In this document: in pieces, positions 1 through 21,302 of the stretch
Layout: each line of letters starts with the position of its first letter
How positions within the stretch are numbered: position 1 is the first letter of the stretch
IMG/VR virus record: IMGVR_UViG_3300020153_000075
Span: 1 to 21,535 of that record
Reading direction: 5' to 3' (one strand)
Length of the DNA: 21,535 nt
Source of the DNA: a virus
Notes under the pieces: generated by a model
Seen by the model: only the letters and a program-made list of their open reading frames with translations
Databases searched by the model: none
What the model was told of the DNA's origin: nothing
Translations under genes and position numbers: made by a program

Positions 1-220
1 GTTCCCTTTCACGCAGTATCCTTTCTATCGTTGCGTCTCTGTCAAACGTCTCCTCGTAACCTGCCCATTTTCCTATCAGGATTTCAAAGTATTCGTGGTT
101 CACCAACCCAAGAAACTGTGGCAGAAAGAGTTTCCCTGAATAACCAAACTGTTCCATTAACACAACACGCAGTGGGCATTGGTGATAGTTTTCCAGTTTA
201 TAGTATGCTATTTTATACAT
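1..220 (-). CDS. RecB/Cas4-like PD-(D/E)XK nuclease, N-terminal fragment cut by window edge
   Basis: The reading frame opens at an ATG (220-218) that overlaps the stop of the RuvC-like gene upstream and runs open off the left edge, giving 73 visible codons. The start of the protein reads as a Cas4/RecB-family exonuclease: a YYKLENYHQCPLR segment at residues 6-18 matches the usual 'S.L..Y..CP..Y' opening, where the Cys can be an Fe-S ligand in Cas4 and AddB. LGLVNHEYFE at about residues 36-45 matches nuclease motif I (G..xHe..E). The D and E-x-K motifs would lie beyond the edge, so activity cannot be judged. It has no clear Shine-Dalgarno sequence, so translation is probably coupled to the RuvC-like gene. 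Next to a Rad52-like annealing protein, it would be the natural 5'-3' exonuclease partner. The family call is an inference from two short motifs. Confidence 0.6.
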   Translation of the reverse strand, partial: MYKIAYYKLENYHQCPLRVVLMEQFGYSGKLFLPQFLGLVNHEYFEILIGKWAGYEETFDRDATIERILRERE

Positions 221-728
221 CGTCTACGCTTACAGGAAACCGCTTAACGGTGGCTGTTTCTATCTTACCGTAGAAAGTAAAATACATGCCCAATGCGTCT
301 ACAATGTGTTCGGATGGAGTAAAACGCTTGAAGCCCAATTTACGCGGATTGACACCCGCCCTTAAACTCCAGTTGCTGGGATGTGCCCAACGTGTCTCAA
401 TACCAAAGCCCCGCAGGTAACCGCTGACGAAACCACAAGCCCCCGCTAACCTGATGTTCGGGTAAACGGGTTCTTCTATAACGGCTTCCTCTTCTTCATG
501 TGGGTCGGTATTGGTATAGATAAACCTTTGAATGAAGTCGCAGGCTTCACCAGTGGAAGCGTAAATTGTAAAACAGTTCAAACCGCCTTTGGTCGCAAAG
601 AGTAATCCCCAGTGTCCTCTATGAACCCGTTCACCGTCGGCTTTCCATCCTGAAGACGCTGGGTCTACACAGATAACGCCCTTCTTTGGTGGGTCGCATT
701 TCACGAGATAGGCTTCTATTATCTTCAT
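213..728 (-). CDS. RuvC-like Holliday junction resolvase / RNase H-fold nuclease
   Basis: The product has 171 residues, close to the usual RuvC size of 150-175. It carries the acidic residues in RuvC order: VICVDPASSGW (D22; compare RuvC GIDPG), VIEEPVYPN (E85/E86; compare AIEQVF), then a helix rich in G and A, and SEHIVDALGMY near the C-terminus (H141, D144; compare the HAADALA motif). Members of this family cut four-way DNA junctions symmetrically, and in phages they resolve recombination intermediates or trim branched DNA before packaging. Two adjacent ATGs are possible. The second (728) is chosen because it sits 6 nt from the GGGGG core of the ribosome binding site, whereas the first (731) is only 3 nt away. 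It follows the Rad52-like gene after a 51-nt gap that contains a 9-bp hairpin. The family call is strong; the exact substrate is inferred. Confidence 0.8.
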   Translation of the reverse strand: MKIIEAYLVKCDPPKKGVICVDPASSGWKADGERVHRGHWGLLFATKGGLNCFTIYASTGEACDFIQRFIYTNTDPHEEEEAVIEEPVYPNIRLAGACGFVSGYLRGFGIETRWAHPSNWSLRAGVNPRKLGFKRFTPSEHIVDALGMYFTFYGKIETATVKRFPVSVDDV

Positions 729-746
729 CATTCACCCCCTGTGAAA

Positions 747-770
747 GGGAAGGGGTTTTCTCCCCTTCCC
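747..770 (-). repeat. 9-bp perfect hairpin between annealase and resolvase genes
   Basis: GGGAAGGGG (747-755) and CCCCTTCCC (762-770) form a perfect stem with a 6-nt loop. In the transcribed (minus) direction the stem is followed only by TTTC, so it would be at most a weak terminator. It ends about 16 nt before the resolvase ribosome binding site. It may attenuate transcription, protect mRNA ends, or affect translation of the resolvase. Confidence 0.6.
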
Positions 771-779
771 TGCGTTTGT

Positions 780-1562
780 CTACCGTCGTGAACCAAGCAC
801 TTTGTCAAGGTGTGCCTTGATTTGTGCATCGGTCGGAAACTCATCATCGCTTTCAGGCGGTTCGGCATTCCGCATGTAGGCGATAGCCTGCTTTCTGGTT
901 ACTTTGCTGATTTCCAGAAAAGCATCCACCGCCTCATCGGGGTTGTATACGCCAAAGAAGTCAAGCCACTCTTCCTTGATGTTCTGTGCCGAAGCACTGC
1001 CACTGCTTTTGGTGGTTGCTTTTGTCTCTTCTTCGCTGTCGCGGTTTCTTTCGGGATAGAACACGACTTCCATCTTTTCCTTCAGGTTCATGGCATGGCG
1101 AAGCGCATCCAATGGGTCGGCGTCGTAGATAATACGTCCGTTATCGTCCTTTTTCCCGCTGAGATGTATCTTGGGCAGGTGATAGAGATACCGCCCCAAT
1201 CCGATATGGCTGAGCAAACGCCGATAGAGGTCGGTGATAGCCGACTTCGGCGGTTCTGCACTCTGCGCCTGTGCGTAACCCGCATCTGCGACACGATAGA
1301 CAGTGGCTTCTTCTTCGTGGGGTAGCGTAACCACCATGCTTCCCAAAGCAACGGTAGCGTCGCCCATCTCCTTCAGGCTTTCCACAGTGATTTCTACCTT
1401 CGCACCTGCGGGAAGCACTTCCTGCAACCGCTGTTCCATTGTGCGAAGGTCAATGTAGTAAGCCAACCAGAAACCGCTTCGGGTCGTAGACACGATACGA
1501 TATTCGTGTTCCTCAACAGGAAACGGTTGCGACAGCATACTCACCAGTTCGTTCAGTGTCAT
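780..1562 (-). CDS. Rad52-family single-strand annealing protein
   Basis: The product has 260 residues. The N-terminal 130 follow the Rad52/22 domain: an opening helix with PFP..EHEYR (residues 13-22), a YYIDLRTMEQRLQEVL segment (35-50) matching the family's 'Y......v..rLdev.g', strands, and then the signature SAITDLYRRLLSHIGLGRYLYHLP (residues 107-130), which corresponds to 'A.sdA.kRaa...GiGRYLY'. These proteins form rings that anneal complementary single strands and serve as phage recombinases alongside an exonuclease. Residues 170-195 are a charged, S/T-rich linker, and the C-terminal tail is acidic (ESDDEFPTD), as in many annealases that contact SSB or partner proteins. The start is supported by AGGAGG about 9 nt upstream, the only canonical Shine-Dalgarno sequence noted in the window. 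The start lies inside the previous gene, overlapping it by 50 bp. Confidence 0.85.
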   Translation of the reverse strand: MTLNELVSMLSQPFPVEEHEYRIVSTTRSGFWLAYYIDLRTMEQRLQEVLPAGAKVEITVESLKEMGDATVALGSMVVTLPHEEEATVYRVADAGYAQAQSAEPPKSAITDLYRRLLSHIGLGRYLYHLPKIHLSGKKDDNGRIIYDADPLDALRHAMNLKEKMEVVFYPERNRDSEEETKATTKSSGSASAQNIKEEWLDFFGVYNPDEAVDAFLEISKVTRKQAIAYMRNAEPPESDDEFPTDAQIKAHLDKVLGSRR

Positions 1563-2004
1563 GGTCGTAAGCCTCCTTTGTTTGTTTGGTGATTTTGTCT
1601 AAGACGGTAAGCGGATTGCCCCGCATGGTCAGCGTGGCGCACCTTTTGCTGAGGCGTATGAGAAGATATGCCTTCTCTTCCTTCTCGTCGGTAAACGAAA
1701 GGGACAGTGTGCTTTCCTCTTTGAAGCGCACCACCTGCAAAACGACTTCCTTCTGTGCGCCAAAAACATACTCTACGGAGCCTTCCATTTCACCGTCGGG
1801 AATGGTCTTGATGGTTATCACCTTTGGAAGGATGTCCTTGTTTCCGACGGAAAGAACGGCTTCAGCCCTGATGTTGTCAAACACCACCGAAGCGTAGGTG
1901 TCTTCCTTCTCCCAACCGATAGCACCGCGAACCAGAATGCCTGCGGGTGCAAAAAGGTCGGCGTTCATGTTGTCAACGCTGATTTTTCTGTAGTATTCGG
2001 TCAT
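1513..2004 (-). CDS. Unrecognised 163-residue protein upstream of the annealase
   Basis: I do not recognise this protein. It looks like alternating beta strands (for example KVITIKTIP, SVEYVFGAQKEVVLQVVRF, TLSLSFTD, AYLLIRLS) followed by a short helix near the C-terminus (NPLTVLDKITKQTKEAYD). This shape resembles several plus-strand small proteins further right. AAGGAGAG lies just upstream of the ATG at 2004, and the stop of the preceding gene (2008-2010) falls within that ribosome binding site, so the two are translationally linked. Its last 50 bp are shared with the start of the Rad52-like gene in another frame. Because it is co-transcribed with recombination genes, a role in DNA binding or recombination is possible, but nothing in the sequence proves it. 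Confidence 0.75.
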   Translation of the reverse strand: MTEYYRKISVDNMNADLFAPAGILVRGAIGWEKEDTYASVVFDNIRAEAVLSVGNKDILPKVITIKTIPDGEMEGSVEYVFGAQKEVVLQVVRFKEESTLSLSFTDEKEEKAYLLIRLSKRCATLTMRGNPLTVLDKITKQTKEAYDHDTERTGEYAVATVSC

Positions 2005-2007
2005 CTC

Positions 2008-2469
2008 TCACTCTCCTTCCTCTGGGTAGTTTCGTTCTTTCCACTCTTTGCAGAACCTCTCAATCTCTGCAACGGGATTGCCGTAGCATTCAGAGTAAGC
2101 CCAGTCTTTGTAATCGGTCATAAACACAAACAGACTGGTGGACGCAGTAACGATAACCTGCGCAGGGTTGTCTTCTGGTGCGTTTGAATTGAAAATAACA
2201 ACACGAACCACCACTTCGCCATCATCATTGCACCAGTGCCAAATGCTGGTGGTTCCGTCTTCGTTGGTCTCTTCGTATCCCTTTGAAACCTCTATCTCGT
2301 ATTCGTCCCAGCCTTCGGGGTCAAGCAACCACAGCCCTGAAGTCTTTTGCAGTGCGTTGCAGACGAGAAGCGGAAGTTCGCCCTCAATCTCTACGGATTT
2401 GATGAGTTTCTTTTCTTCGTCTATAACCACCAGATAGAAGTCGTTGTTGTAATGAAAACGGTGTGTCAT
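2008..2469 (-). CDS. Unrecognised acidic 153-residue protein
   Basis: No family is recognised. The protein is acidic and rich in W, Y and E, with predicted strands (FYLVVIDEEKK, EVVVRVVIFN, AQVIVTASTSLFVFM) and a C-terminal helix (PVAEIERFCKEWKER). It contains WLLDPEGWDEYEIEV and SIWHWCNDDGE. The frame stays open upstream to 2541, but the ATG at 2469 is chosen because it is preceded by AAACCAAAGGGGGTGAA, the standard ribosome binding site of this genome. The longer version would start without such a site. It is the second gene of the leftward operon, 40 nt after the first. It resembles an early phage protein of the small acidic type, with no function assignable. Confidence 0.75.
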   Translation of the reverse strand: MTHRFHYNNDFYLVVIDEEKKLIKSVEIEGELPLLVCNALQKTSGLWLLDPEGWDEYEIEVSKGYEETNEDGTTSIWHWCNDDGEVVVRVVIFNSNAPEDNPAQVIVTASTSLFVFMTDYKDWAYSECYGNPVAEIERFCKEWKERNYPEEGE

Positions 2470-2509
2470 CGTATTCACCCCCTTTGGTTTTGTTTCCGTT
2501 CTATTAGAC

Positions 2510-3031
2510 TTAGACGTGTTCTGTGTCCAAAAAGTTCCCACCGTTTAAGTCCCATGTTCGTAGTGCCTTTACAGCACCGCTAACAGGGGTTAACGGATAG
2601 TCAGTGTTGACAGGTGGTTCGGGATAGGTAATCTTCTCCAATTGCTTTTCAATCTCTGTGGTGTCTTCTGCAGGATTTAAAAGATAAACCTGCGGATAGC
2701 ACACGCGGTGAGCAAAGAGAATAAACAGAGAAACAAGAAGGTCTTCGTTCTTCTGACCTTTGACGCAACGTATGAAACTGGTGATAGGATTGACGGCTAT
2801 TACAAACGGCGTAACGGCATAAAAAAGTTGAAGCAAACCGTTCAGCACCTCTACGGCGTTGCGGGGATATTCGGCGTTAGTAACACTGAAGAACCTAATA
2901 CCCAACAGCCGATTGTATTTGTGAACATACTTGTATTCTTCGGAAACGGTCTCGTTGTCATAGCCTTCGGCGAAAACGAAGATTTTCGGTTCTCCGTGTT
3001 CACCAAGTTTGGTCTCTATGTATTCCACCAT
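2510..3031 (-). CDS. Unrecognised 173-residue protein, first gene of the leftward operon
   Basis: I do not recognise this protein. It has charged ends and a hydrophobic centre (NGLLQLFYAVTPFVIAVNP and DLLVSLFILFAHRVCYPQVYLL, about residues 65-120). These could be buried strands and helices or weak membrane segments. The pattern F-V-F-A-E-G-Y-D near the N-terminus followed by charged helices is consistent with a soluble alpha/beta fold. The start at 3031 is preceded by AAAGGGGG with about 9 nt spacing, and a longer in-frame version to 3073 would begin inside the promoter. A clear extended -10 element lies 31-39 nt upstream of the ATG, which makes this the promoter-proximal gene of the leftward set. 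Confidence 0.7.
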   Translation of the reverse strand: MVEYIETKLGEHGEPKIFVFAEGYDNETVSEEYKYVHKYNRLLGIRFFSVTNAEYPRNAVEVLNGLLQLFYAVTPFVIAVNPITSFIRCVKGQKNEDLLVSLFILFAHRVCYPQVYLLNPAEDTTEIEKQLEKITYPEPPVNTDYPLTPVSGAVKALRTWDLNGGNFLDTEHV

Positions 3032-3061
3032 ATTAAAAGCCCCCTTTCTTTGGATGGGTCT

Positions 3062-3070
3062 ATTATACCA
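3062..3070 (-). promoter_or_regulatory. Extended -10 promoter for the leftward operon
   Basis: On the minus strand the sequence reads TGTGGTATAATAG, a perfect TATAAT (3067-3062) with the TGn extension. No good -35 hexamer lies 16-18 bp upstream (AAAAGT at best), as is common for extended -10 promoters. The predicted start would be about 3055, some 20 nt before the ribosome binding site of the first leftward gene. The same 12-mer TGTGGTATAATA recurs on the plus strand at 20731-20742. Confidence 0.7.
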
Positions 3071-3374
3071 CATTTTTCTGTTTCACTTTTTAGACGACGA
3101 AAGTTCAAAAAATGTTCCCATTTTGGTAAGCACAGGTTGTTAAATTGCATAAAAGAAATACATAATTTTCGTAAATCTTACGGTTCTATGTTTTTCTCTG
3201 AGTTCACTAAAGTATACTTTACTAAAATGCGTTTAACTGTGATTATACTAATTTAACTTATACTATCGGAATAAAAACGAACAGCTGTTATAAATAATAT
3301 ATATTTATTATTTAAATATACAACGTTCGTTAATTACGTAGTAAGTAAGTATATCCCCAACGATACCCTTTAGT

Positions 3375-3423
3375 TTTAATTCAATACATACTCAATTCTA
3401 AGAACAGTATGTATTGAATTAAA
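3375..3423. repeat. 17-bp perfect inverted repeat (hairpin) in the divergent region
   Basis: TTTAATTCAATACATAC (3375-3391) is the exact reverse complement of 3407-3423, with a 15-nt loop. Two more pairs form if T3374 is bulged. The stem is A/T-rich, and no T tract makes it a terminator of either operon. It sits about 130 nt before the rightward -10 element, so it may be an operator, an origin hairpin or a cruciform-forming site. Confidence 0.75.
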
Positions 3424-3556
3424 CTTATGAGTGTGTGAGAGGGGCTTTCCAAAAAGAAGTTGGCGTTGCAAAAATTGCGAACCGCACCAACCCGCCGATG
3501 CCACCGCAGGGCATGAAAGGTTTTCGCAGATTGGAACAAAATCGGCGAAACCGTCG

Positions 3557-8090: not shown

Positions 8091-8597
8091 ATGAGTTACA
8101 CTTTCTTTTTAAAGCCTGAAGAGTTATTCAAACAAAAGGGGTGGAGTTGGGTAACCCGTAAAATTGATACTGTCGTTTTACATTATTCGGCTGTTACGGG
8201 AAAAAAGACGGCAGAGAGTGTGCGTCAGCAATTGGAAGCTATTCGCCAATACCACGTAAAGAACAGGGGTTGGAAGGACATCGCCTATCATATCGGTATT
8301 GACCTTCTTGGGCGTTATTGGGCATTGCGTCCAATAAACCAAATGGGGGCGCATTGCAAAGGGCATAACGCTACCAGCATAGGTGTTGTGTTGTTGGCTG
8401 ACGAAGAACAGTTACAATCAGCCCCGCTGTTAGAGGAAGCCGTTTTGAAGCTGTTCAGTTATCTAAACATTCGTTTTAAGCAACCCGCCTTTTTCCTTCA
8501 CAGGCAGTTAAATAAGACGAAGTGTCCGCCTATACGGAAAGAGTTTGAAGAGAGATTGTATAACTTGGGTTATCTTAGCGGGGGTGATGATGAATGA
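8091..8597 (+). CDS. N-acetylmuramoyl-L-alanine amidase (phage endolysin)
   Basis: The 168-residue protein is a single amidase_2/PGRP-type domain that cleaves the bond between muramic acid and L-alanine in peptidoglycan. The zinc ligands are in place: H31 in VVLHYSA, H137 in FFLHRQLNKTKCPP and C145 in the same motif. DIAYHIGID (Y66) and MGAHCKGHNATSIGVVLL are standard family motifs. It has no signal peptide, membrane anchor or cell-wall-binding domain, so export would depend on a holin; a T7-lysozyme-like role is also possible given the size. The start at 8091 follows AAGGGGGTGATGG. Its end overlaps the portal gene by 4 bp. Position between terminase and portal is unusual for a lysis gene. 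Confidence 0.9.
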   Translation: MSYTFFLKPEELFKQKGWSWVTRKIDTVVLHYSAVTGKKTAESVRQQLEAIRQYHVKNRGWKDIAYHIGIDLLGRYWALRPINQMGAHCKGHNATSIGVVLLADEEQLQSAPLLEEAVLKLFSYLNIRFKQPAFFLHRQLNKTKCPPIRKEFEERLYNLGYLSGGDDE

Positions 8598-15165: not shown

Positions 15166-15775
15166 TGTATGCAAACGCGAAGTCCCGAAAGCCGAAGAGA
15201 GGGTGTTGGCAGGCGTAAGGCTGTCCGTCTGCCCATATCATAGCCGACGGCTGTTTGCGTTCCATCCGTTTATCTATGTAGACGGCGTGGACGTAGAGAC
15301 GGCTGATGAACTTCTTAACGACAGCGGTATCGTTAAGGTGTTCTGCCGTCATAATCCGCTGGAAGATGAGTTTGCGGAAGACTATATGGTCATGCTCAGC
15401 ATTCTGCGCCATGCTTCTAACGCACTTTACAAAGGCGAAAAGACGGGGCTGTTCTTCGTGTTGAACAGTCCACTAACTGTCTCTTCGTGGTTAGGTGGAA
15501 TACCACAAGACCTGACGCGGAACTTTATCCGACCCGCCGTTTGGGTTAACGCGATGGACTATCAGATACGTATCGGCGATAAGGTGATGGGCATACGGCG
15601 GTTTATCAACAGTCTTACCAAACAGTTTCCGCCGACTGAAGTCTTTCAATACCGAAGTCTTCCAAGCGACGAACGAGGCGTATCCAACATGCTGAACATG
15701 GCATGGAACCTGTGGAGACGACAACACGAAAACTATCTAGAACGCAGGAGAAGGAAAAATGAAAACGAGGATTGA
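15152..15775 (+). CDS. Unrecognised 207-residue protein with N-terminal zinc-ribbon-like motif
   Basis: The N-terminus has CDVC (C4, C7) and CPYH (C27, H30), spaced like a small zinc finger or zinc ribbon. The rest has a long segment with LFFVLNSPLTVSSWLGG and a C-terminal basic helix (WNLWRRQHENYLERRRRK). The motif suggests binding of DNA, RNA or RNA polymerase, but no specific family is recognised. AGGAAGGGGGAAGAAAAAG precedes the ATG, which is a good site. It overlaps both neighbours by 14 and 17 bp, so it belongs to the same transcription unit as the genes at 14923 and 15759. Confidence 0.7.
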   Translation: MKYCDVCKREVPKAEERVLAGVRLSVCPYHSRRLFAFHPFIYVDGVDVETADELLNDSGIVKVFCRHNPLEDEFAEDYMVMLSILRHASNALYKGEKTGLFFVLNSPLTVSSWLGGIPQDLTRNFIRPAVWVNAMDYQIRIGDKVMGIRRFINSLTKQFPPTEVFQYRSLPSDERGVSNMLNMAWNLWRRQHENYLERRRRKNENED

Positions 15776-16046
15776 CATCGCGACAACCGAAATCAGCATA
15801 GAGACGCCGACAGGACACCGCAGTTTTGAATGGGTTGATGGCGAAGTCTACCTTAATGGCAAACCGCTGAAGACGGTAGCATCGCCACAGTTACGGGGAA
15901 CCGACTTCTGGACTGCCGAAAAGCCGTATGTGAAACTCTGTTCTATTATCAACGGCAGTTTCGTGTGGTGGGTTCCGTCCCTTCAGGAATACCTGAACGA
16001 CAAAAAGGAAGGGGTGAAGGCGAATGCTGACAGAGAAACTGTATGA
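15759..16046 (+). CDS. Unrecognised 95-residue protein
   Basis: No family is recognised. The first half has strands (RIDIATTEISIETPTG and SFEWVDGEVYLNGKPLK), followed by W-rich sequence (GTDFWTAEKP and GSFVWWVPSLQEYL). It may be a small beta barrel with an ending helix. The ribosome binding site is AGGAGAAGG. It overlaps the neighbours by 17 and 23 bp. Confidence 0.65.
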   Translation: MKTRIDIATTEISIETPTGHRSFEWVDGEVYLNGKPLKTVASPQLRGTDFWTAEKPYVKLCSIINGSFVWWVPSLQEYLNDKKEGVKANADRETV

Positions 16047-16533
16047 TTGGGTTCACGCAATCCTACCGCAGACCGATGTCAATGTAGAACTACGCGAAAA
16101 CTTGGTGCGGGTGTCTTCCGCAGAGGTAACGATTGAACTGCGTCCCGACCGAGTAGAGGTTTACGTAGACGCGGTGCGCAACATGCGGATAGGTAAGGAA
16201 GGTTTCTTCATCTCTGGAAAAGCCGTAGACGCAGGCTACGACAGGGAAACAGGTAGTGCCTTCCGACAGTCATTCTATCACCGCTACGGCTTTACGAAGT
16301 ATTATACCTTCCTGTTCAGACAGCGAAGGCGCAACGAAGGAGACGGCGTAAAAATCACCGTAGAACTAGAGTTAGAATGGCTGAAGAACGAGTTTGCTGA
16401 AAGGGAACAGATTACTGCAGGCTTCTACGAAAAGGACGGGATAGCGCAGGCTGAGTGGGTTTTCGTGGGCAACGCCTTTCGCCTTTGCAGTCGTCTGAAG
16501 AAGGCAATCACAAAGGCATTAAAAGAGAGGTGA
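16024..16533 (+). CDS. Unrecognised 169-residue beta-plus-helix protein
   Basis: No family is recognised. It is strand-rich in the first two thirds (VNVELRENLVRVSSAEVTIEL, then VEVYVDAVRNM), with a basic stretch FRQRRRNEGDGVKITVELELEW, and ends in an amphipathic basic helix (FRLCSRLKKAITKALKER). That architecture resembles several neighbours (genes at 17260, 18021, 18790 and 19308). The ribosome binding site is GAAGGGGTGAAGG. Its basic C-terminal helix could contact nucleic acid, but this is speculative. Confidence 0.7.
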   Translation: MLTEKLYDWVHAILPQTDVNVELRENLVRVSSAEVTIELRPDRVEVYVDAVRNMRIGKEGFFISGKAVDAGYDRETGSAFRQSFYHRYGFTKYYTFLFRQRRRNEGDGVKITVELELEWLKNEFAEREQITAGFYEKDGIAQAEWVFVGNAFRLCSRLKKAITKALKER

Positions 16534-16538
16534 TAACC

Positions 16539-16772
16539 ATGCGGGAACCACGAGAGTTTGACCTATTCGGTTTCATTGCGTTTGCGGTAAGCGTTCCGAT
16601 TGCGCTGTTAATACCTTTAGCGCAATTGGCGGTGCTGGTGTTGGGCGTTTACTCTTTCGTCCATCACGTTTACGCACCACAGCAGGAGAAGCCGAAGACG
16701 GTTTACGAAGAGAACATGCGGAACTATCAGGAGTTTCTGGAAAAACAAAACGACTTTCTTAGGGGGTGGTAA
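16539..16772 (+). CDS. Single-pass small membrane protein (77 residues)
   Basis: Residues about 12-45 are hydrophobic (IAFAVSVPIALLIPLAQLAVLVLGVYSFV), followed by a charged, Q/N/E-rich helical tail (YEENMRNYQEFLEKQNDFL). With PREFDLFGF before it, the protein looks like an inner-membrane protein with a cytoplasmic or external tail. The start at 16539 follows AGAGAGGTGATAACC; the longer frame back to 16455 is inside the previous gene. It ends one nt before the secreted-protein gene, so the two probably act in the same compartment. Confidence 0.65.
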   Translation: MREPREFDLFGFIAFAVSVPIALLIPLAQLAVLVLGVYSFVHHVYAPQQEKPKTVYEENMRNYQEFLEKQNDFLRGW

Positions 16773-16773
16773 G

Positions 16774-17244
16774 ATGACCAAACTTATTCGCTACATCACC
16801 GTTGCGGTTGTAATCGTTCTCCTGTCGCTGGTTGCTACCCACGCAGAGGAAAAGCGCATTCCGTTCACGGCTTTGGAGGAACCCGTAGGGGTGCGCTTGG
16901 AGACGCCGAACCGCATACGGGTTGGGCAGGAAGCCACCATACGGGTTATTCTGCGCAACCCCTACAGAGATGAACAGATAACGCTGACCGCCTACGCTAC
17001 CTATTTAGTGGGCGAAGCCGAAGTCGTTTCGTCAGCGTCTACCACGCTGACTGTTGACCGCAGTCTGGTGATGAGGGTAGACCTTAATCTGGGATTGCTT
17101 TCTCTTGTGGCGGGTTCACCCACTTTTGACGGTGTGCCGATAAGCAACGTTGTGAGAAACAACACCAACGTATTGACGTTTCCGCAGATAGAACTACCTG
17201 CCGACGACAACGACCACGTTTTGGAAATAAGGGTAATCCGTTAG
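16774..17244 (+). CDS. Secreted or periplasmic beta-sandwich-like protein
   Basis: Residues 1-24 form a typical signal peptide: basic start, hydrophobic core (ITVAVVIVLLSLVA) and a THA-EE cleavage site. The mature part has a GVRLETPNRIRVGQEATIRVILRN segment that looks like an immunoglobulin-like strand pattern. Several further strands follow, with threonine-rich VSSASTTLTVDR. It has no lipobox cysteine, so it should be released into the periplasm or outside. A secreted phage protein outside the lysis genes suggests interaction with the envelope, superinfection exclusion or a virion role. The fold is not known. The start has GGGGTGGTAAG upstream, and the gene follows the membrane protein at 16539. 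Confidence 0.7.
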   Translation: MTKLIRYITVAVVIVLLSLVATHAEEKRIPFTALEEPVGVRLETPNRIRVGQEATIRVILRNPYRDEQITLTAYATYLVGEAEVVSSASTTLTVDRSLVMRVDLNLGLLSLVAGSPTFDGVPISNVVRNNTNVLTFPQIELPADDNDHVLEIRVIR

Positions 17245-17259
17245 GAAGGGGGAACGAGA

Positions 17260-17685
17260 ATGAGACAATCAGAGACGAACATTCGGTTGGACAGGGACAG
17301 CGCAGTAATCGTCTTTGGTAACCAGTTTACCATTACCATTGAGGAAGGCGGTTATATGGGAATAGGCAACGCCGAAGGAAAGGAACTGCGCTACCGACCT
17401 ACGCGACTGGAGAACCCAGCAAAGGTGGACAACCAGTCAATCCTACCTGTGGGTGAACGGATGGAAAGCGAACAAGTCATCAGGGTGGAAGACAATCTCA
17501 TGCTGGAACTACGAACCAGTAGGATAGACAACCACCTGAAAGCCGAAGTGCTGTTCCGTATCATTGCGGATGGGGAAAGTCTATTCGCGGGTGTATTCGC
17601 CGAGTGGGTTGACGGCGACTGGGTAATCGGTTTTCGGCGAATGGACGACTTCCTGACGCTGGTTGATAAAGTCTTCAGGTTGTAG
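17260..17685 (+). CDS. Unrecognised 141-residue beta-plus-helix protein
   Basis: No family is recognised. Strands dominate (SAVIVFGNQFTITIEEGGYM and NLMLELRTSRIDNHLKAEVLF), followed by acidic FAEWVDGDWVIGFRR and a final amphipathic helix (MDDFLTLVDKVFRL). It shares this layout with neighbours at 16024, 18021, 18790 and 19308, though no sequence identity is obvious. The ribosome binding site is AAGGGGGAACGAG. It is 15 nt after the secreted protein gene. Confidence 0.7.
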   Translation: MRQSETNIRLDRDSAVIVFGNQFTITIEEGGYMGIGNAEGKELRYRPTRLENPAKVDNQSILPVGERMESEQVIRVEDNLMLELRTSRIDNHLKAEVLFRIIADGESLFAGVFAEWVDGDWVIGFRRMDDFLTLVDKVFRL

Positions 17686-17696
17686 GATGAAAGGCT

Positions 17697-17981
17697 GTGG
17701 GTTGGGTGTTTGCATACGTTTTGCTTTGTCATATTCTCCTGTTGAAAACCCAACCCACCGTTGCTTTCTTTCTATTAGCAATTGTCTTTACGACATTCCT
17801 CATCATTGCTTTTTCGGTTTATCAGCCGACGGAGAGGGAGAAGACCGTTTTCGTTGTCATCTATACTGTGTTTGCCCTTACGCTACATCCGTTTTCGGCT
17901 GACGCAATCCTATCGTGGTGGATAGCCACCTTTCTTTTGGTATGCGAAGGGGGAAACAAACGGTGTAGAAACGACGTCTAA
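17697..17981 (+). CDS. Multi-pass membrane protein (94 residues), GTG start
   Basis: The frame starting with GTG at 17697 encodes a hydrophobic protein with about three membrane segments (WVFAYVLLCHILLL, AFFLLAIVFTTFLIIAFSV and VFVVIYTVFALTLHPF, then LSWWIATFLLV), with short charged loops (YQPTEREKT). An overlapping frame starting with ATG at 17687 gives a Cys/His-rich product without any sensible fold, so the GTG frame is preferred. AGGATGAAAGG lies just upstream, making GTG usable. This is the most hydrophobic protein in the window and a second holin candidate, or a host-membrane protein. Confidence 0.55.
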   Translation: MGWVFAYVLLCHILLLKTQPTVAFFLLAIVFTTFLIIAFSVYQPTEREKTVFVVIYTVFALTLHPFSADAILSWWIATFLLVCEGGNKRCRNDV

Positions 17982-18020
17982 TGAGATAGAAGAAGACGCT
18001 AATGAGAGGGGGAACAGCCT

Positions 18021-18494
18021 ATGAATGACGCAGAAGAAATCATGTCAAGGCTTGGCAAAGAGAACATGACCCTATTGGCGCAGGCGGTGTATTCTCTTCG
18101 GCTTTTGCGGGAACTGTTTTTGCAGTATCGCGAATACACCCAACCGCTGTCGGACGTCATTACCGACGCCATGAACAGGCGGGTGCTGTTAGACAAACGG
18201 TTTCGGGAAGGCGGTTACTTTGCTTCCGTTCGGTATGATACCAACAGCGACCAGCATACCTGCGAAATGGAGTTTCAGTGCGAAGCCGAAGGCGTTTTCA
18301 GTTTTGGCATCACCGTCTACGAAGATGAAGACAACGACGTCTTTGAGATAATTCTGGAAGAGGGGGCGTCCACCGACTTTATCAGGCGAATGCTGGAAAC
18401 CCTGCTGATATGCCACATGAACCTTTACGAACAGTTAACGGCTGTTAGCAAAGGCTACGGACAGTTTATCGTAGAACCCAAAAAGCCTAACTGA
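18021..18494 (+). CDS. Unrecognised 157-residue protein, alpha then beta
   Basis: No family is recognised. Residues 1-60 are helical (MSRLGKENMTLLAQAVYSLR and LRELFLQYREY), followed by strands (GYFASVRYDTNSD, CEMEFQCEAEGVFSFGITVYE) and an acidic loop (DEDNDVF), then a helix (DFIRRMLETLLICHMNL). The last part resembles neighbours at 17260, 18790 and 19308. GAGAGGGGGAACAGCC precedes the ATG. It ends just before a strong hairpin terminator, so it is the last clear gene of its transcription unit. Confidence 0.75.
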   Translation: MNDAEEIMSRLGKENMTLLAQAVYSLRLLRELFLQYREYTQPLSDVITDAMNRRVLLDKRFREGGYFASVRYDTNSDQHTCEMEFQCEAEGVFSFGITVYEDEDNDVFEIILEEGASTDFIRRMLETLLICHMNLYEQLTAVSKGYGQFIVEPKKPN

Positions 18495-18757
18495 TGGTCA
18501 GCCGAAGCCAAGACCGATGGCGAAGCGGGATGGTTTCCTTTCCGCTTCGCCTTTTCGTTGCGCAAACACACACAGGAAGAGGGTGGGTTGGTGAACCTAT
18601 TTACTCCACCGACCACAGTAAGGTTGGTGGGGTTGGTGAGGACACTGAACTCATTTACTTTACTGACTACGGCGACCTCTTCCACCGCCGACTGTGGACG
18701 GCGTTACCTTTATATATGGTGGACAGTGGGAACCTTTGGGCGCATACCTGCGTCTAA
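18494..18757 (+). CDS. Doubtful 87-residue ORF coupled by TGATG overlap
   Basis: The ATG shares its A with the TGA of the previous gene, as in two clear gene pairs here (12677 and 13264). The frame runs 87 codons, and its second half has a protein-like composition with two similar pieces (EPIYSTDH and ELIYFTDYGD). Against it: no ribosome binding site, no recognised family, and a perfect terminator hairpin (18519-18551 plus TTTT) inside codons 9-20, which would stop transcription before the ORF is complete. Either the gene is read only when termination fails, or the ORF is accidental. Treat with caution. Confidence 0.3.
   Translation: MVSRSQDRWRSGMVSFPLRLFVAQTHTGRGWVGEPIYSTDHSKVGGVGEDTELIYFTDYGDLFHRRLWTALPLYMVDSGNLWAHTCV
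18519..18555 (+). terminator. Intrinsic terminator after the 14923-18494 gene group
   Basis: GGCGAAGCGG (18519-18528) pairs perfectly with CCGCTTCGCC (18542-18551), with a 13-nt loop, followed by TTTT and CG. The stem is long and G/C-rich, and the T run is short, so it may be only partly efficient. Confidence 0.75.
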
Positions 18758-18769
18758 GTGAGTGAAACT
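18556..18769. other. Low-confidence spacer with hairpins; no sure gene
   Basis: Between the terminator and the ribosome binding site of the gene at 18790 the sequence is G/T-rich with 'GGTTGGTG' repeats (for example near 18588 and 18631). A 9-bp stem CCACCGACC/GGTTGGTGG (18606-18630, with one G-U pair) has a 7-nt loop, and there is a short CGCCG/CGGCG hairpin (about 18686-18703). It may hold a small RNA, a leader or the doubtful ORF above. A clear promoter was not found. Confidence 0.35.
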
Positions 18770-18789
18770 AAACCAAAGGGGTGAACAAG

Positions 18790-19227
18790 ATGGAGAACAC
18801 CATTTACATTCGCACCAAGACCGAAGGGGAAACCACTTGGTTAACCTTCTATCCGCAACACGAAGACCTGCTTTACCTGAACATTCAGGCTAATCGCAAA
18901 GGTTTTCACATTCGCGGTGAAGTCCTCCACGACGAGAAAGGCTATGCCTGTGGGCTAAAGGTAGAGAGAGAGACTGCTGTTGCGTCCTTCGGAGAGAAAG
19001 AGGAAGTCCTGCGGGTGGTGGTGTCCTGCGGAGACAATTCATTATTACTTCTCTGCAACACCTTCGCTGATGTTACCGTTATTCCGCAGTTTGAAGGTTA
19101 TGCTTCTCTGGACATCTATTCAGGGGACGAACACCTTCGGGTTAGTTACGACTATCTCTACCGTTCTATCGTGGTGGACGGCAGTCTGCGTCCTTTGGTG
19201 AAACTGCTGAAAGGCATTCTGCCATAA
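18790..19227 (+). CDS. Unrecognised 145-residue beta-plus-helix protein
   Basis: No family is recognised. The protein alternates strands (TIYIRTKTEGETTWLTFYP, LLYLNIQANRKGFHIRGEVL, VLRVVVSCGDNSLLLL, YASLDIYSG, HLRVSYDYL) and ends with a short amphipathic helix (SLRPLVKLLKGILP). It belongs with the similar small proteins nearby. The ATG at 18790 is favoured over the GTG at 18781 because AAACCAAAGGGGTG lies at the correct distance. It is followed by its own terminator hairpin, so it appears to be a one-gene unit. Confidence 0.75.
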   Translation: MENTIYIRTKTEGETTWLTFYPQHEDLLYLNIQANRKGFHIRGEVLHDEKGYACGLKVERETAVASFGEKEEVLRVVVSCGDNSLLLLCNTFADVTVIPQFEGYASLDIYSGDEHLRVSYDYLYRSIVVDGSLRPLVKLLKGILP

Positions 19228-19247
19228 GGTAGACCAGTAATCTGAAG

Positions 19248-19275
19248 GGACGGAGTTTAACTCCGTCCTTCTCTT
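19248..19275 (+). terminator. Terminator-like hairpin after the 18790 gene
   Basis: GGACGGAGTT (19248-19257) and AACTCCGTCC (19259-19268) form a perfect 10-bp stem with a one-base formal gap, realistically 9 bp with loop TTA. It is followed by TTCTCTT, a poor T tract, so termination may be incomplete. A shared AAACCAAAGAGAGGGG leader begins 12 nt after that T tract (19287). Confidence 0.65.
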
Positions 19276-19307
19276 AGCAGATACCAAAACCAAAGAGAGG
19301 GGTGGGC

Positions 19308-19736
19308 ATGATGAAAGTCTATCTAATTGGGCAAAAAGGGCAGGAAAAGGGCAAAGTGGACATTAACGCAGAGGACGGCGTATTGGTGATAGATGAACAA
19401 CATGCCGTCTACACCAACCGCTACGGCGTAGAGTATGTTTTGCCTCGTGTGGGCAGTTACTTTAAGGCAGGACGTTACCGCCTATCCTTTAACCCGAACA
19501 GAAACCCTGCGCTGATTATCTTTAAGTGGAACACGACCAGCAGAACCGTTCAGGTAGTCTGCGAAGTGTGGAGTGTGGGAGACAGCGCAGAGGCAGAAGT
19601 AAAGGGCGACAGAGGGCAACTGCTTCAGCTGATGGAACACCTGTTCTGTCTGTCCGTCCCTGTTGGAAACTACATCCCCAATCCCGAAGAGGGAGAGGGC
19701 GATTATATCCTGTTTGCGAACTACGACAGGATGTAA
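19308..19736 (+). CDS. Unrecognised 142-residue beta-plus-helix protein
   Basis: No family is recognised. Strands include KVYLIGQKGQEKGKVDINAE, GVLVIDEQHAVYTNRYGVEY, YRLSFNPNRNPALIIFKW and TVQVVCEVWSVG, with a helix (RGQLLQLMEHLFCL) near the C-terminus, and a final PNPEEGEGDYILFANYD. This again matches the small-protein layout of its neighbours. Two consecutive ATGs (19308 and 19311) follow AGAGAGGGGTGG; the first is listed, and either is possible. The gene is preceded by the AAACCAAAG leader box. Confidence 0.75.
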   Translation: MMKVYLIGQKGQEKGKVDINAEDGVLVIDEQHAVYTNRYGVEYVLPRVGSYFKAGRYRLSFNPNRNPALIIFKWNTTSRTVQVVCEVWSVGDSAEAEVKGDRGQLLQLMEHLFCLSVPVGNYIPNPEEGEGDYILFANYDRM

Positions 19737-19855
19737 ACATGGAAAACCATTTTTCTGAAAATAGCCCTCTGAACGTGAAACTTTTTGAGTGTCTCCTGCG
19801 TCTATATATGTGGAAAGCGAAAAACGCTTTGAAAACTGCAAAGGGGGTAAACGAA

Positions 19856-20686
19856 ATGAAGACCTTCTACGTGGTGGGTATCCAGAGTGCTAAGCAGTCT
19901 GACGGTATTGGGTTGTGGACTGATGGCAATACCATCTACCGAGACCCGATACGAGTTTACGACAACATTCAGGAAGCCCTGAAGGCAGGACGTGAGAACC
20001 GACAGGAGTGCATCCTAGAGGTATGTGCCAACGACCCCGAAGGTAACGCATTCCTGAGTTACGCAGAAGACCTTAACCAGCGTCTGCGCATTAGTAACGC
20101 CTTTGCCGTAGGGGAAACGACAGGACTGACCCAATTGTATCAACCGATAGAGGTGGACGGTGCTGCTTTTAGCACCTTCACCGTAGCGGAGAGACCAATT
20201 GAGGGATGTAGTGTTATCCCATGCCGTTACCGCTTTCTGTCTACTAATGAGATAGAGGGTAGGTTTACCTACTACCTGAACCTGCTGATAGCCAAGACCC
20301 AGAAAGCAGGGAGTATCTTTCTCTATGACGGCAAAACGGCATATACCGTCAAAATTGGACGCTTCGCCTTTGCCCCGAATGGGGTAGGCTATGAGGTTCC
20401 TGCGGTGCGATACTGCTACGGTAATGATGACGACCTACTCTACAGCGTTGCATTTACCGCAAACGGTAGGAAGTGGTGCTGTTTCAGGGGACTACCGCAG
20501 GAAGTCAAGGACGAACTAGGAGAAACCTTTAAGAAGAATGGGAGAAGCATTCCCCACCTGCTAAGAAAGGTGATAGGCTATTGGCGTCTTACGGGTGGTG
20601 ATGGGTATGTTAGTGATACTCCTTCGCCTTATGCTGTAATAAATGTTAAACTGGGCGAAGGAGAGTGGGTTAACCTTCTCCCATAG
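19856..20686 (+). CDS. Unrecognised 276-residue protein
   Basis: No family is recognised. It is the largest product of the right-hand small-gene region. The N-terminus has a strand-rich opening (KTFYVVGIQSAKQSDGIGLW, then NTIYRDPIRVYDNIQEALKAG), recalling domains that read host or phage proteins. Later parts include strands and loops (IEGCSVIPCRYRFLS) and a cysteine-containing segment near 200-230 (VRYCYG, then RKWCCFRG). The ATG at 19856 follows AAGGGGGTAAACG and is preferred. An in-frame ATG at 19739, just after the previous stop, would add 39 residues and has only a weak AGGATG site. The sequence 19737-19855 would otherwise be non-coding. It ends seven bases before a strong inverted repeat. 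Confidence 0.7.
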   Translation: MKTFYVVGIQSAKQSDGIGLWTDGNTIYRDPIRVYDNIQEALKAGRENRQECILEVCANDPEGNAFLSYAEDLNQRLRISNAFAVGETTGLTQLYQPIEVDGAAFSTFTVAERPIEGCSVIPCRYRFLSTNEIEGRFTYYLNLLIAKTQKAGSIFLYDGKTAYTVKIGRFAFAPNGVGYEVPAVRYCYGNDDDLLYSVAFTANGRKWCCFRGLPQEVKDELGETFKKNGRSIPHLLRKVIGYWRLTGGDGYVSDTPSPYAVINVKLGEGEWVNLLP

Positions 20687-20692
20687 GAAAGA

Positions 20693-20725
20693 GGGGAAAC
20701 GGCGAAAAAACATTGCCGTTTCCCC
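20693..20725. repeat. 11-bp inverted repeat overlapping the -35 of the next promoter
   Basis: GGGGAAACGGC (20693-20703) is the exact reverse complement of GCCGTTTCCCC (20715-20725) with an 11-nt A-rich loop. There is no T run on either side, so it is not a standard terminator. The right arm holds the -35 hexamer TTGCCG partly (20713-20718). It could act as an operator, or as an RNA hairpin that ends or protects the previous transcript. Confidence 0.8.
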
Positions 20726-20741
20726 AAAACTGTGGTATAAT
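20713..20741 (+). promoter_or_regulatory. Sigma-70-type promoter with extended -10
   Basis: TTGCCG (20713-20718; four of six matches to TTGACA), a 17-bp spacer and perfect TATAAT (20736-20741) preceded by TGG. The 12-mer TGTGGTATAATA is identical to that of the leftward promoter at 3062-3070. It drives genes at 20790 and 21117, with an estimated leader of about 40 nt. Confidence 0.8.
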
Positions 20742-20789
20742 ATAGGTGAAGATAAGAACCCCGAAACCAAAGAGAAGGGAGTGCTAAGA

Positions 20790-21098
20790 ATGACTATCAC
20801 CAAACTACTGTCCGAAGGTTGCCGTCCTTCACCTGTCGCGGAAACCTTCCTGAAGAAGATTACCGAACTGGAACCGCTCCATGCATTCACTAAGTCTGCT
20901 GTTGTCCCAGTGGGTGCATATCTGGTTCCCTTCGTAGACAGGAACGGCAAACTGGTGGCATGGTGTCCTTTCGTAACCCGTCCTTCTGTTGGGCAACCGC
21001 TTTATGTGCAGATGGAATACAGAGACCCAAATACGGTGTGGCGGTTGACCGAAAGCGGGTTTGTGAAGGTGGCATCCGCCGTTAACGAAGACTACTAA
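20790..21098 (+). CDS. Unrecognised 102-residue protein behind a strong promoter
   Basis: No family is recognised. The protein is compact, with an early helix (SPVAETFLKKITELEPL) followed by strands (AVVPVGAYLVPFVDRNGKLVAWCPF and QPLYVQMEYRD) and aromatic residues. The ATG at 20790 follows AAGGGAGTG; a GTG nine bases upstream is in frame. It is the first gene of the last transcription unit, directly behind the TATAAT promoter, so it is likely expressed early or strongly. The AAACCAAAGAGAAGGGAGTG leader box recurs upstream of other genes. Confidence 0.75.
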   Translation: MTITKLLSEGCRPSPVAETFLKKITELEPLHAFTKSAVVPVGAYLVPFVDRNGKLVAWCPFVTRPSVGQPLYVQMEYRDPNTVWRLTESGFVKVASAVNEDY

Positions 21099-21116
21099 AC
21101 GGAAGGGTGAACCGAC

Positions 21117-21302
21117 ATGAGGACGGAAACCAGTATCAAACTGTCAGCAGTGGTGTTATTGCTGACGGCGTTAATAGTCCCCGAAGGGTTTAAGGAATAC
21201 GTAGCATTCTGCTGGGAAAAGGCTCCCTATACGGGACTGCTGTTAGCAATACACTACGGAAAGCCAATTCTGAGATGGCTCCGCTTCCTACTCTACGCAT
21301 AA
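21117..21302 (+). CDS. Small membrane protein (61 residues)
   Basis: Residues 8-22 (KLSAVVLLLTALIVP) and about 38-60 (YTGLLLAIHYGKPILRWLRFLLYA) are hydrophobic with basic residues between them, so it should insert in the cytoplasmic membrane. The family is not recognised; it could be a holin, antiholin or host-membrane protein. GGAAGGGTGAACC precedes the ATG. It is the second gene of the last unit and is followed by a terminator. Confidence 0.65.
   Translation: MRTETSIKLSAVVLLLTALIVPEGFKEYVAFCWEKAPYTGLLLAIHYGKPILRWLRFLLYA

What the first reader, a model, noticed from the sequence alone, without database searches (positions are those of the whole stretch)
1..1562. Compact recombination cassette: Rad52-type annealase, RuvC-like resolvase and RecB/Cas4-like nuclease
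Three adjacent, co-directional genes supply the parts of a complete strand-annealing pathway: an exonuclease-type fold (partial), an annealase with the Rad52 GLGRYLYHLP signature, and a resolvase with the RuvC catalytic residues D22, E85/E86 and D144. Known phage systems pair an annealase with an exonuclease, but the addition of a RuvC-like resolvase in the same operon, with a Rad52-type rather than RecT or Red-beta protein, is less common. The nuclease start overlaps the resolvase stop, which suggests coordinated production. The pathway role is inferred from the families.
Basis: partly seen in the sequence, partly recalled or inferred. Interest (0 to 1): 0.65.

Follow-up and report, generated by a model that had tools for sequence, protein, structure and literature searches.

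The report
Phage operon for DNA strand annealing
A tailed-phage fragment carries, side by side, genes for a Rad52-type DNA-annealing protein, a probable junction-cutting enzyme too divergent for any tested family library, and a Cas4-like DNA nuclease; it is a clean but fairly ordinary phage recombination kit, with an unexplained conserved RNA hairpin between two of its genes.

Summary
Three minus-strand genes lie at 2-1562 of a tailed-phage record: annealase (780-1562), putative resolvase (213-731) and the first 73 residues of a nuclease cut off by the window edge (2-220). Three related IMG/VR contigs keep the order annealase > resolvase > nuclease and continue into a family-B DNA polymerase. 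A fourth is truncated inside the resolvase.

The annealase is a Rad52/Erf-type protein (profile comparison E=3.6e-14 with other phage annealases; Pfam Rad52_Rad22 above cut-off for a 62%-identical homologue). The complete nuclease homologues are PD-(D/E)XK enzymes with D...DxK, QxxxY and four cysteines, close to Cas4/RecB.

The 'RuvC' label is the weak part. No Pfam, PHROG or NCBIfam model recognises the protein, profile comparison is within noise, and the predicted fold failed (pLDDT 35). Still, the RuvC catalytic acids D/E/(E,H)/D align in order, and the motif found only RuvCs and this family among 483 ORFs.

Annealase + nuclease + resolvase is a known phage arrangement (SPP1). RuvC-like > Cas4-like > polymerase also occurs in Moorella phage MTATph1. 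New here are the orphan resolvase family and a GC-rich hairpin between annealase and resolvase in all five phages, with unrelated stem sequences.

The parts
780..1562 (-). Rad52/Erf-type single-strand annealing protein, 260 aa; Rad52-like core about residues 3-152, confident helical C-terminal domain about 197-257
   Evidence: PHROG 1097 Erf-like E=6.1e-9; homologue L002 Pfam Rad52_Rad22 22.1 bits, cut-off 20.3; hhalign E=3.6e-14; RM378 annealase 30% identity, E=2e-4; model: core below pLDDT 65, C-terminal domain about 85
746..771 (-). GC-rich hairpin between annealase and resolvase genes (10-bp perfect stem, 6-nt loop)
   Evidence: z=-3.1; a hairpin at the same position in all four relatives with different stem sequences (z -3.2 to -6.0)
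213..731 (-). putative RuvC-like (RNase H-fold) junction-resolving nuclease, 172 aa; D23, E86/E87, E141/H142, D145
   Evidence: ordered motif, invariant in 4 phages; no family hit; weak PHROG 1770 'Holliday junction resolvase' for homologue L002 (E=0.17; 0.0013 per genome)
2..220 (-). N-terminal 73 aa of a Cas4/RecB-like PD-(D/E)XK nuclease (contains C15 and H42); the rest lies outside the window
   Evidence: 68-70% identical to full-length homologues in L002-L004, which hit PDDEXK_1 at 4.7e-15 and PHROG 1706 at 2.7e-9
213..220 (-). 8-nt overlap of resolvase stop and nuclease start (ATGTATAA)
   Evidence: same overlap in L003 and L004
1513..2004 (-). upstream co-directional gene of unknown function, probably same operon; overlaps the annealase ORF by 50 nt
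   Evidence: homologue found by tblastn in L017, 34%
2008..2541 (-). upstream co-directional gene of unknown function
   Evidence: homologues in all four relatives
2510..3073 (-). upstream co-directional gene of unknown function, first gene of the leftward cluster
   Evidence: homologues in all four relatives

Best explanation
This is the recombination part of the leftward DNA-metabolism operon of a tailed dsDNA phage. Proposed working: the Cas4/RecB-like nuclease resects double-strand ends; the Rad52-type protein coats the exposed single strands, probably as rings, and anneals them to complementary strands at other ends or at forks; the RuvC-like nuclease cuts the resulting four-way or branched junctions so that concatemers can be extended by the phage polymerase and packaged by the terminase. 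Shown: identity of the annealase and nuclease families, gene order, conserved acids, 8-nt overlap, adjacent polymerase B in relatives, conserved hairpin. Inferred: all biochemical activities, cooperation between the proteins, resection polarity, operon transcription. The hairpin probably sets expression so that the annealase, needed in bulk, is made in excess over the downstream enzymes; this is inference.
For: Annealase family. Nuclease motifs and family in three full-length homologues. Resolvase acids aligned by MAFFT to RuvC D7/E66/D138/D141; motif found in 8 of 8 RuvC controls, 2 in 50,000 shuffles, and among 483 ORFs only in RuvCs and this family. Conserved order ending in polymerase B. 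Same RuvC > Cas4-like > DNA polymerase order, with one regulator gene between, in Moorella phage MTATph1. Precedent for the pathway: SPP1 G34.1P/G35P/G44P (PMC3485210).
Against: No family library recognises the resolvase, and the profile comparison with RuvC (score 17.1 against 13.0 +/- 2.9 for shuffles) is not significant. The GxGxAxK stretch of cellular RuvC has no counterpart. Both fold predictions are poor because only 4-5 relatives exist, and Foldseek found nothing usable. No activity data. The motif was written after seeing the sequences.
Confidence: 0.72

Rival explanations
1. The middle gene is an RNase H-fold protein with another job (an RNase H-like primer-removal or flap enzyme, or a binding protein), so the operon is annealase + exonuclease without a resolvase.
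For: No RuvC, PHROG or NCBIfam hit; RuvC profile comparison not significant; GxGxAxK region missing.
Against: E-E after a hydrophobic strand and (E/H)xxxD near the C-terminus match RuvC order and spacing; the only weak family hit is a Holliday junction resolvase; its neighbours are recombination genes.
Confidence: 0.2
2. The Cas4-like nuclease serves counter-defence (interference with host CRISPR adaptation) or general DNA processing and is not the partner of the annealase.
For: Similarity to Cas4 (TIGR00372 E=4e-5, below its cut-off; PHROG 1706 'CRISPR/Cas system associated').
Against: Its place between resolvase and DNA polymerase B is conserved in three phages, with a stop/start overlap in two of them and in the window; similar genes sit beside RuvC and polymerase genes in other phages.
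Confidence: 0.12
3. The genes are simply part of a general early replication operon; co-directionality reflects shared timing and not a coupled pathway.
For: They are followed by polymerase B and preceded by three unknown genes in one direction.
Against: The three genes stay immediate neighbours in the related contigs, while the upstream unknown genes diverge faster (about 28-48% against 57-71% identity).
Confidence: 0.25

Closest known systems
Phage Rad52/Erf-type annealases (PHROG 1097; RM378 Rm378p018, Thermus phage MN1_340, Vibrio phage D65, Pseudoalteromonas H6/1 gp33)
   Same: Rad52 core with G-x-G-(R/L)-YLY motif; significant profile match
   Different: 19-30% identity; the window protein has its own helical C-terminal domain; those loci pair the annealase with an exonuclease (MN1), an SMC-like protein and RusA (H6/1) or another resolvase (D65)
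Moorella phage MTATph1 replication cluster
   Same: RuvC-like resolvase, Cas4-like nuclease and DNA polymerase in the same order and direction
   Different: a regulator gene separates resolvase and nuclease; no annealase recognised nearby in the one candidate scanned (CDS0069)
SPP1 recombination set (G34.1P exonuclease, G35P annealase, G44P Holliday junction resolvase)
   Same: three-part exonuclease + annealase + resolvase pathway leading to concatemers (PMC3485210)
   Different: G44P is RusA-like and lies in a different early operon from G34.1P/G35P (PMC3485210)
Archaeal virus operon with ssDNA-binding, annealing and nuclease activities (Guo et al. 2015, seen as a reference in PMC8093625; paper not read; identification with SIRV2 gp17-19 is from memory)
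   Same: annealing protein and nuclease encoded together in one viral operon
   Different: archaeal virus, different annealing protein, no resolvase in that operon as far as I recall
Microbacterium phage Xitlalli (cluster EK1)
   Same: leftward DNA-metabolism genes with primase/polymerase, RuvC-like resolvase, DNA polymerase and Cas4-family exonuclease; rightward structural genes (PMC9933652)
   Different: polymerase I in place of B; no annealase reported; genes not immediate neighbours

Membership tests
Rad52/Erf single-strand annealing superfamily | significant sequence match to a curated family | tested here: met
   PHROG 1097 E=6.1e-9 for the window protein; PF04098 22.1 bits above its 20.3 cut-off for L002, not for the window protein itself; hhalign E=3.6e-14
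Rad52/Erf single-strand annealing superfamily | Rad52 fold (three-stranded sheet crossed by a helix, then hairpin and helix) | tested here: inconclusive
   predicted element order a-b-b-a-b-b-b-a-b-b-a is compatible, but core pLDDT is at most about 65 and Foldseek gave no match
Rad52/Erf single-strand annealing superfamily | ssDNA binding and annealing, ring or filament formation | not testable with these tools
   needs purified protein
RuvC Holliday junction resolvases | match to PF02075 / PHROG RuvC families | tested here: not met
   no PF02075 match in four records; none in Pfam, PHROGs or NCBIfam; PHROG 1770 only weakly and only for L002
RuvC Holliday junction resolvases | four acidic catalytic residues D7/E66/D138/D141 (D138 is His in some members) | tested here: met
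   D23, E86, E141 or H142, D145 align by MAFFT and are invariant in 4 phages; position correspondence is alignment-based
RuvC Holliday junction resolvases | RNase H-like fold and dimer | tested here: inconclusive
   AlphaFold2 mean pLDDT 34.6 with only 4 sequences
RuvC Holliday junction resolvases | profile-profile similarity above chance | tested here: not met
   hhalign 17.1 against column-shuffle mean 13.0, sd 2.9; both alignments are shallow
Cas4/RecB-like PD-(D/E)XK nucleases | PDDEXK_1 domain with D...(D/E)xK and QxxxY motifs | tested here: met
   in homologues L002 and L003 (PDDEXK_1 4.7e-15, 2e-12); D131, D144-L-K146, Q158...Y162 invariant in the three homologues; beyond the window edge for the window copy
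Cas4/RecB-like PD-(D/E)XK nucleases | four cysteines for an Fe-S cluster | tested here: met
   C15, C226, C231, C237 invariant; C15 present in the window part; cluster itself not testable
CRISPR Cas4 proper (TIGR00372) | score above the equivalog cut-off and CRISPR context | tested here: not met
   23.5 bits against 65; no cas genes noted beside it in L002-L004

The most novel reading that the evidence does not exclude
The 172-aa protein founds a new, very divergent clade of RuvC-superfamily junction resolvases dedicated to annealase-driven (not RecA-driven) phage recombination. It is dosed relative to the annealase by a conserved intercistronic hairpin whose stem is kept while its sequence turns over.
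Probability: 0.35. Interest if true: 0.45.

Novelty: new variant of a known kind. Interest (0 to 1): 0.32.

Why it matters
It shows a compact phage-encoded set of annealase, end-processing nuclease and probable resolvase next to the replicative polymerase, in a phage lineage with a handful of metagenomic relatives and no cultured one found. The resolvase is invisible to current family libraries, so similar junction nucleases may be missed in other phage genomes. If the proteins come from a hot environment (suggested only by RM378, a phage of Rhodothermus marinus, as nearest named annealase relative), they could be heat-stable annealing tools; this is inference.

Tried and rejected
Searches for hosts or proviruses: two scans of genome contigs found no relative of resolvase or annealase. 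Resolvase in phage records: no match. A degenerate EEPxYxN...G..G DNA pattern recovered only the three known relatives plus two chance hits, L043 and L044, rejected on reading them. Resolvase and annealase fold predictions were too poor to use; Foldseek hits to gyrase, relaxase and SH2 domains are treated as meaningless. PDB sequence searches gave nothing for the three proteins. My first RuvC motif expression missed all true RuvCs and was corrected for the first strand before use, so it is partly post hoc. Tempting Pfam hits such as NDUF_B4 and Jag_N are below cut-off and discarded. The intercistronic hairpin as a canonical intrinsic terminator: not favoured, because at most four T follow the stem in the sequences read.

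Full report
Setting. The window is a linear virus record of 21,535 bases. Rightward genes from 3,985 encode a primase-polymerase/AAA helicase, terminase large subunit, amidase, portal and major head protein, so it is a tailed phage. Leftward genes from 3,073 down to the window edge include the finding. The host is unknown: no tRNA and no relative in genome collections.

Observation. Four IMG/VR contigs are relatives: L002, L003, L004 and L005. In the first three the order annealase, resolvase, nuclease is kept and continues into a family-B DNA polymerase (PHROG 262, 1.8e-32 for L002). L005 stops inside the resolvase. The 8-nt stop/start overlap of resolvase and nuclease is kept in L003 and L004. 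In L002 the nuclease appears to start at a GTG 7 nt after the stop.

Annealase. The window protein hits PHROG 1097 (Erf-like annealing protein) at 6.1e-9 and the RM378 annealase at 30% identity, E=2e-4. Pfam Rad52_Rad22 is reached above cut-off by the L002 homologue, not by the window protein itself. A profile of the five relatives matches a separate profile of five other phage annealases at E=3.6e-14 over residues 3-143 of the window protein. The predicted order of helices and strands fits the Rad52 layout described for the superfamily (PMC11783212), but core confidence is low. A C-terminal domain (about 197-257) is confidently helical and may recruit partners, by analogy with Red-beta (inference).

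Nuclease. The window holds only 73 residues, with C15 and H42. The full-length homologues are PD-(D/E)XK nucleases (PDDEXK_1 4.7e-15 and 2e-12; PHROG 1706 2.7e-9) with invariant D131, D144-L-K146, Q158/Y162, and cysteines 15, 226, 231, 237. It is Cas4-like but falls far below the Cas4 equivalog cut-off.

Resolvase. This is the uncertain part. No Pfam, PHROG or NCBIfam model matches the window protein, PF02075 finds nothing in the records, and the only whisper is PHROG 1770 'Holliday junction resolvase' for the L002 copy (0.17; 0.0013 per genome). hhalign against RuvC is inside the shuffle distribution, and the fold prediction failed. Against that, MAFFT places D23, E86, E141/H142 and D145 on the four RuvC catalytic acids, all are invariant in the four phages, and a motif built on them matches 8 of 8 RuvC controls, 2 of 50,000 shuffles, and among 483 ORFs only RuvCs and this family. 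The motif was written after seeing these sequences, so the figures overstate the strength somewhat. I read it as RuvC-like in mechanism, not as a shown member of the RuvC family.

Hairpin. In the gap between annealase and resolvase all five phages have a GC-rich hairpin: window 746-771 (10-bp stem), L002 (10 bp), L003 (interrupted 18-bp stem), L004 (12-bp perfect palindrome), L005/L020 (11 bp). Shuffle z-scores are -3.1, -5.9, -6.0, -3.2 and -3.5; for L004 the minimum-energy fold is a different one, so its z-score does not measure that palindrome. The stems have unrelated sequences. Perfect stems of 9 bp or more are few elsewhere in these records. A structure kept while sequence changes suggests function: attenuation of the downstream genes, or protection of the annealase transcript. 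Few T follow the stem, so it is not a canonical intrinsic terminator.

What is known. Exonuclease, annealase and Holliday junction resolvase together are known from SPP1 (PMC3485210). RuvC-like resolvases without RuvB are common in large phages (PMC7824862). RuvC-like, Cas4-like nuclease and polymerase in this order occur in Moorella phage MTATph1, and RuvC-like next to Cas4-like in Enterococcus phage KEN05. Rad52/Erf-type annealases sit near RusA or another resolvase in Pseudoalteromonas and Vibrio phages. I did not find all three parts of this exact kind side by side in a named phage, but I did not survey that systematically.

Verdict. Interest 0.32.

Noticed in passing
window 746-771 (-); L002 5939-6000; L003 5917-5991; L004 5937-6003; L020 120-185 (-): GC-rich hairpin between annealase and resolvase genes in all five related phages, with unrelated stem sequences; possible attenuator or mRNA-stabilising element.
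   Followed up: partly
window 3074-3430; L003 3719-3873; L004 3276-3450; L005 6299-6437: The gap between the divergent leftward and rightward gene clusters is AT-rich and full of long perfect or near-perfect palindromes (18-nt arms at 3375/3406 in the window; 19- and 23-nt perfect arms in L003); L003 and L004 share a CGGGTGGGGTTTT palindrome. Candidate origin or regulatory region.
   Followed up: partly
window 1513-3073 (-): Three leftward genes upstream of the annealase have no family hit and diverge fast (about 28-48% identity to the relatives); L017 carries a second copy of the 2008-2541 type.
   Followed up: no
window 8091-8597 (+): An N-acetylmuramoyl-amidase-like lysis gene sits inside the packaging module, between terminase large subunit and portal, in all the relatives.
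   Followed up: no
window 15759-21302 (+): A run of small rightward ORFs, several without a detectable homologue in the relatives by tblastn; the last third of the window is poorly conserved.
   Followed up: no
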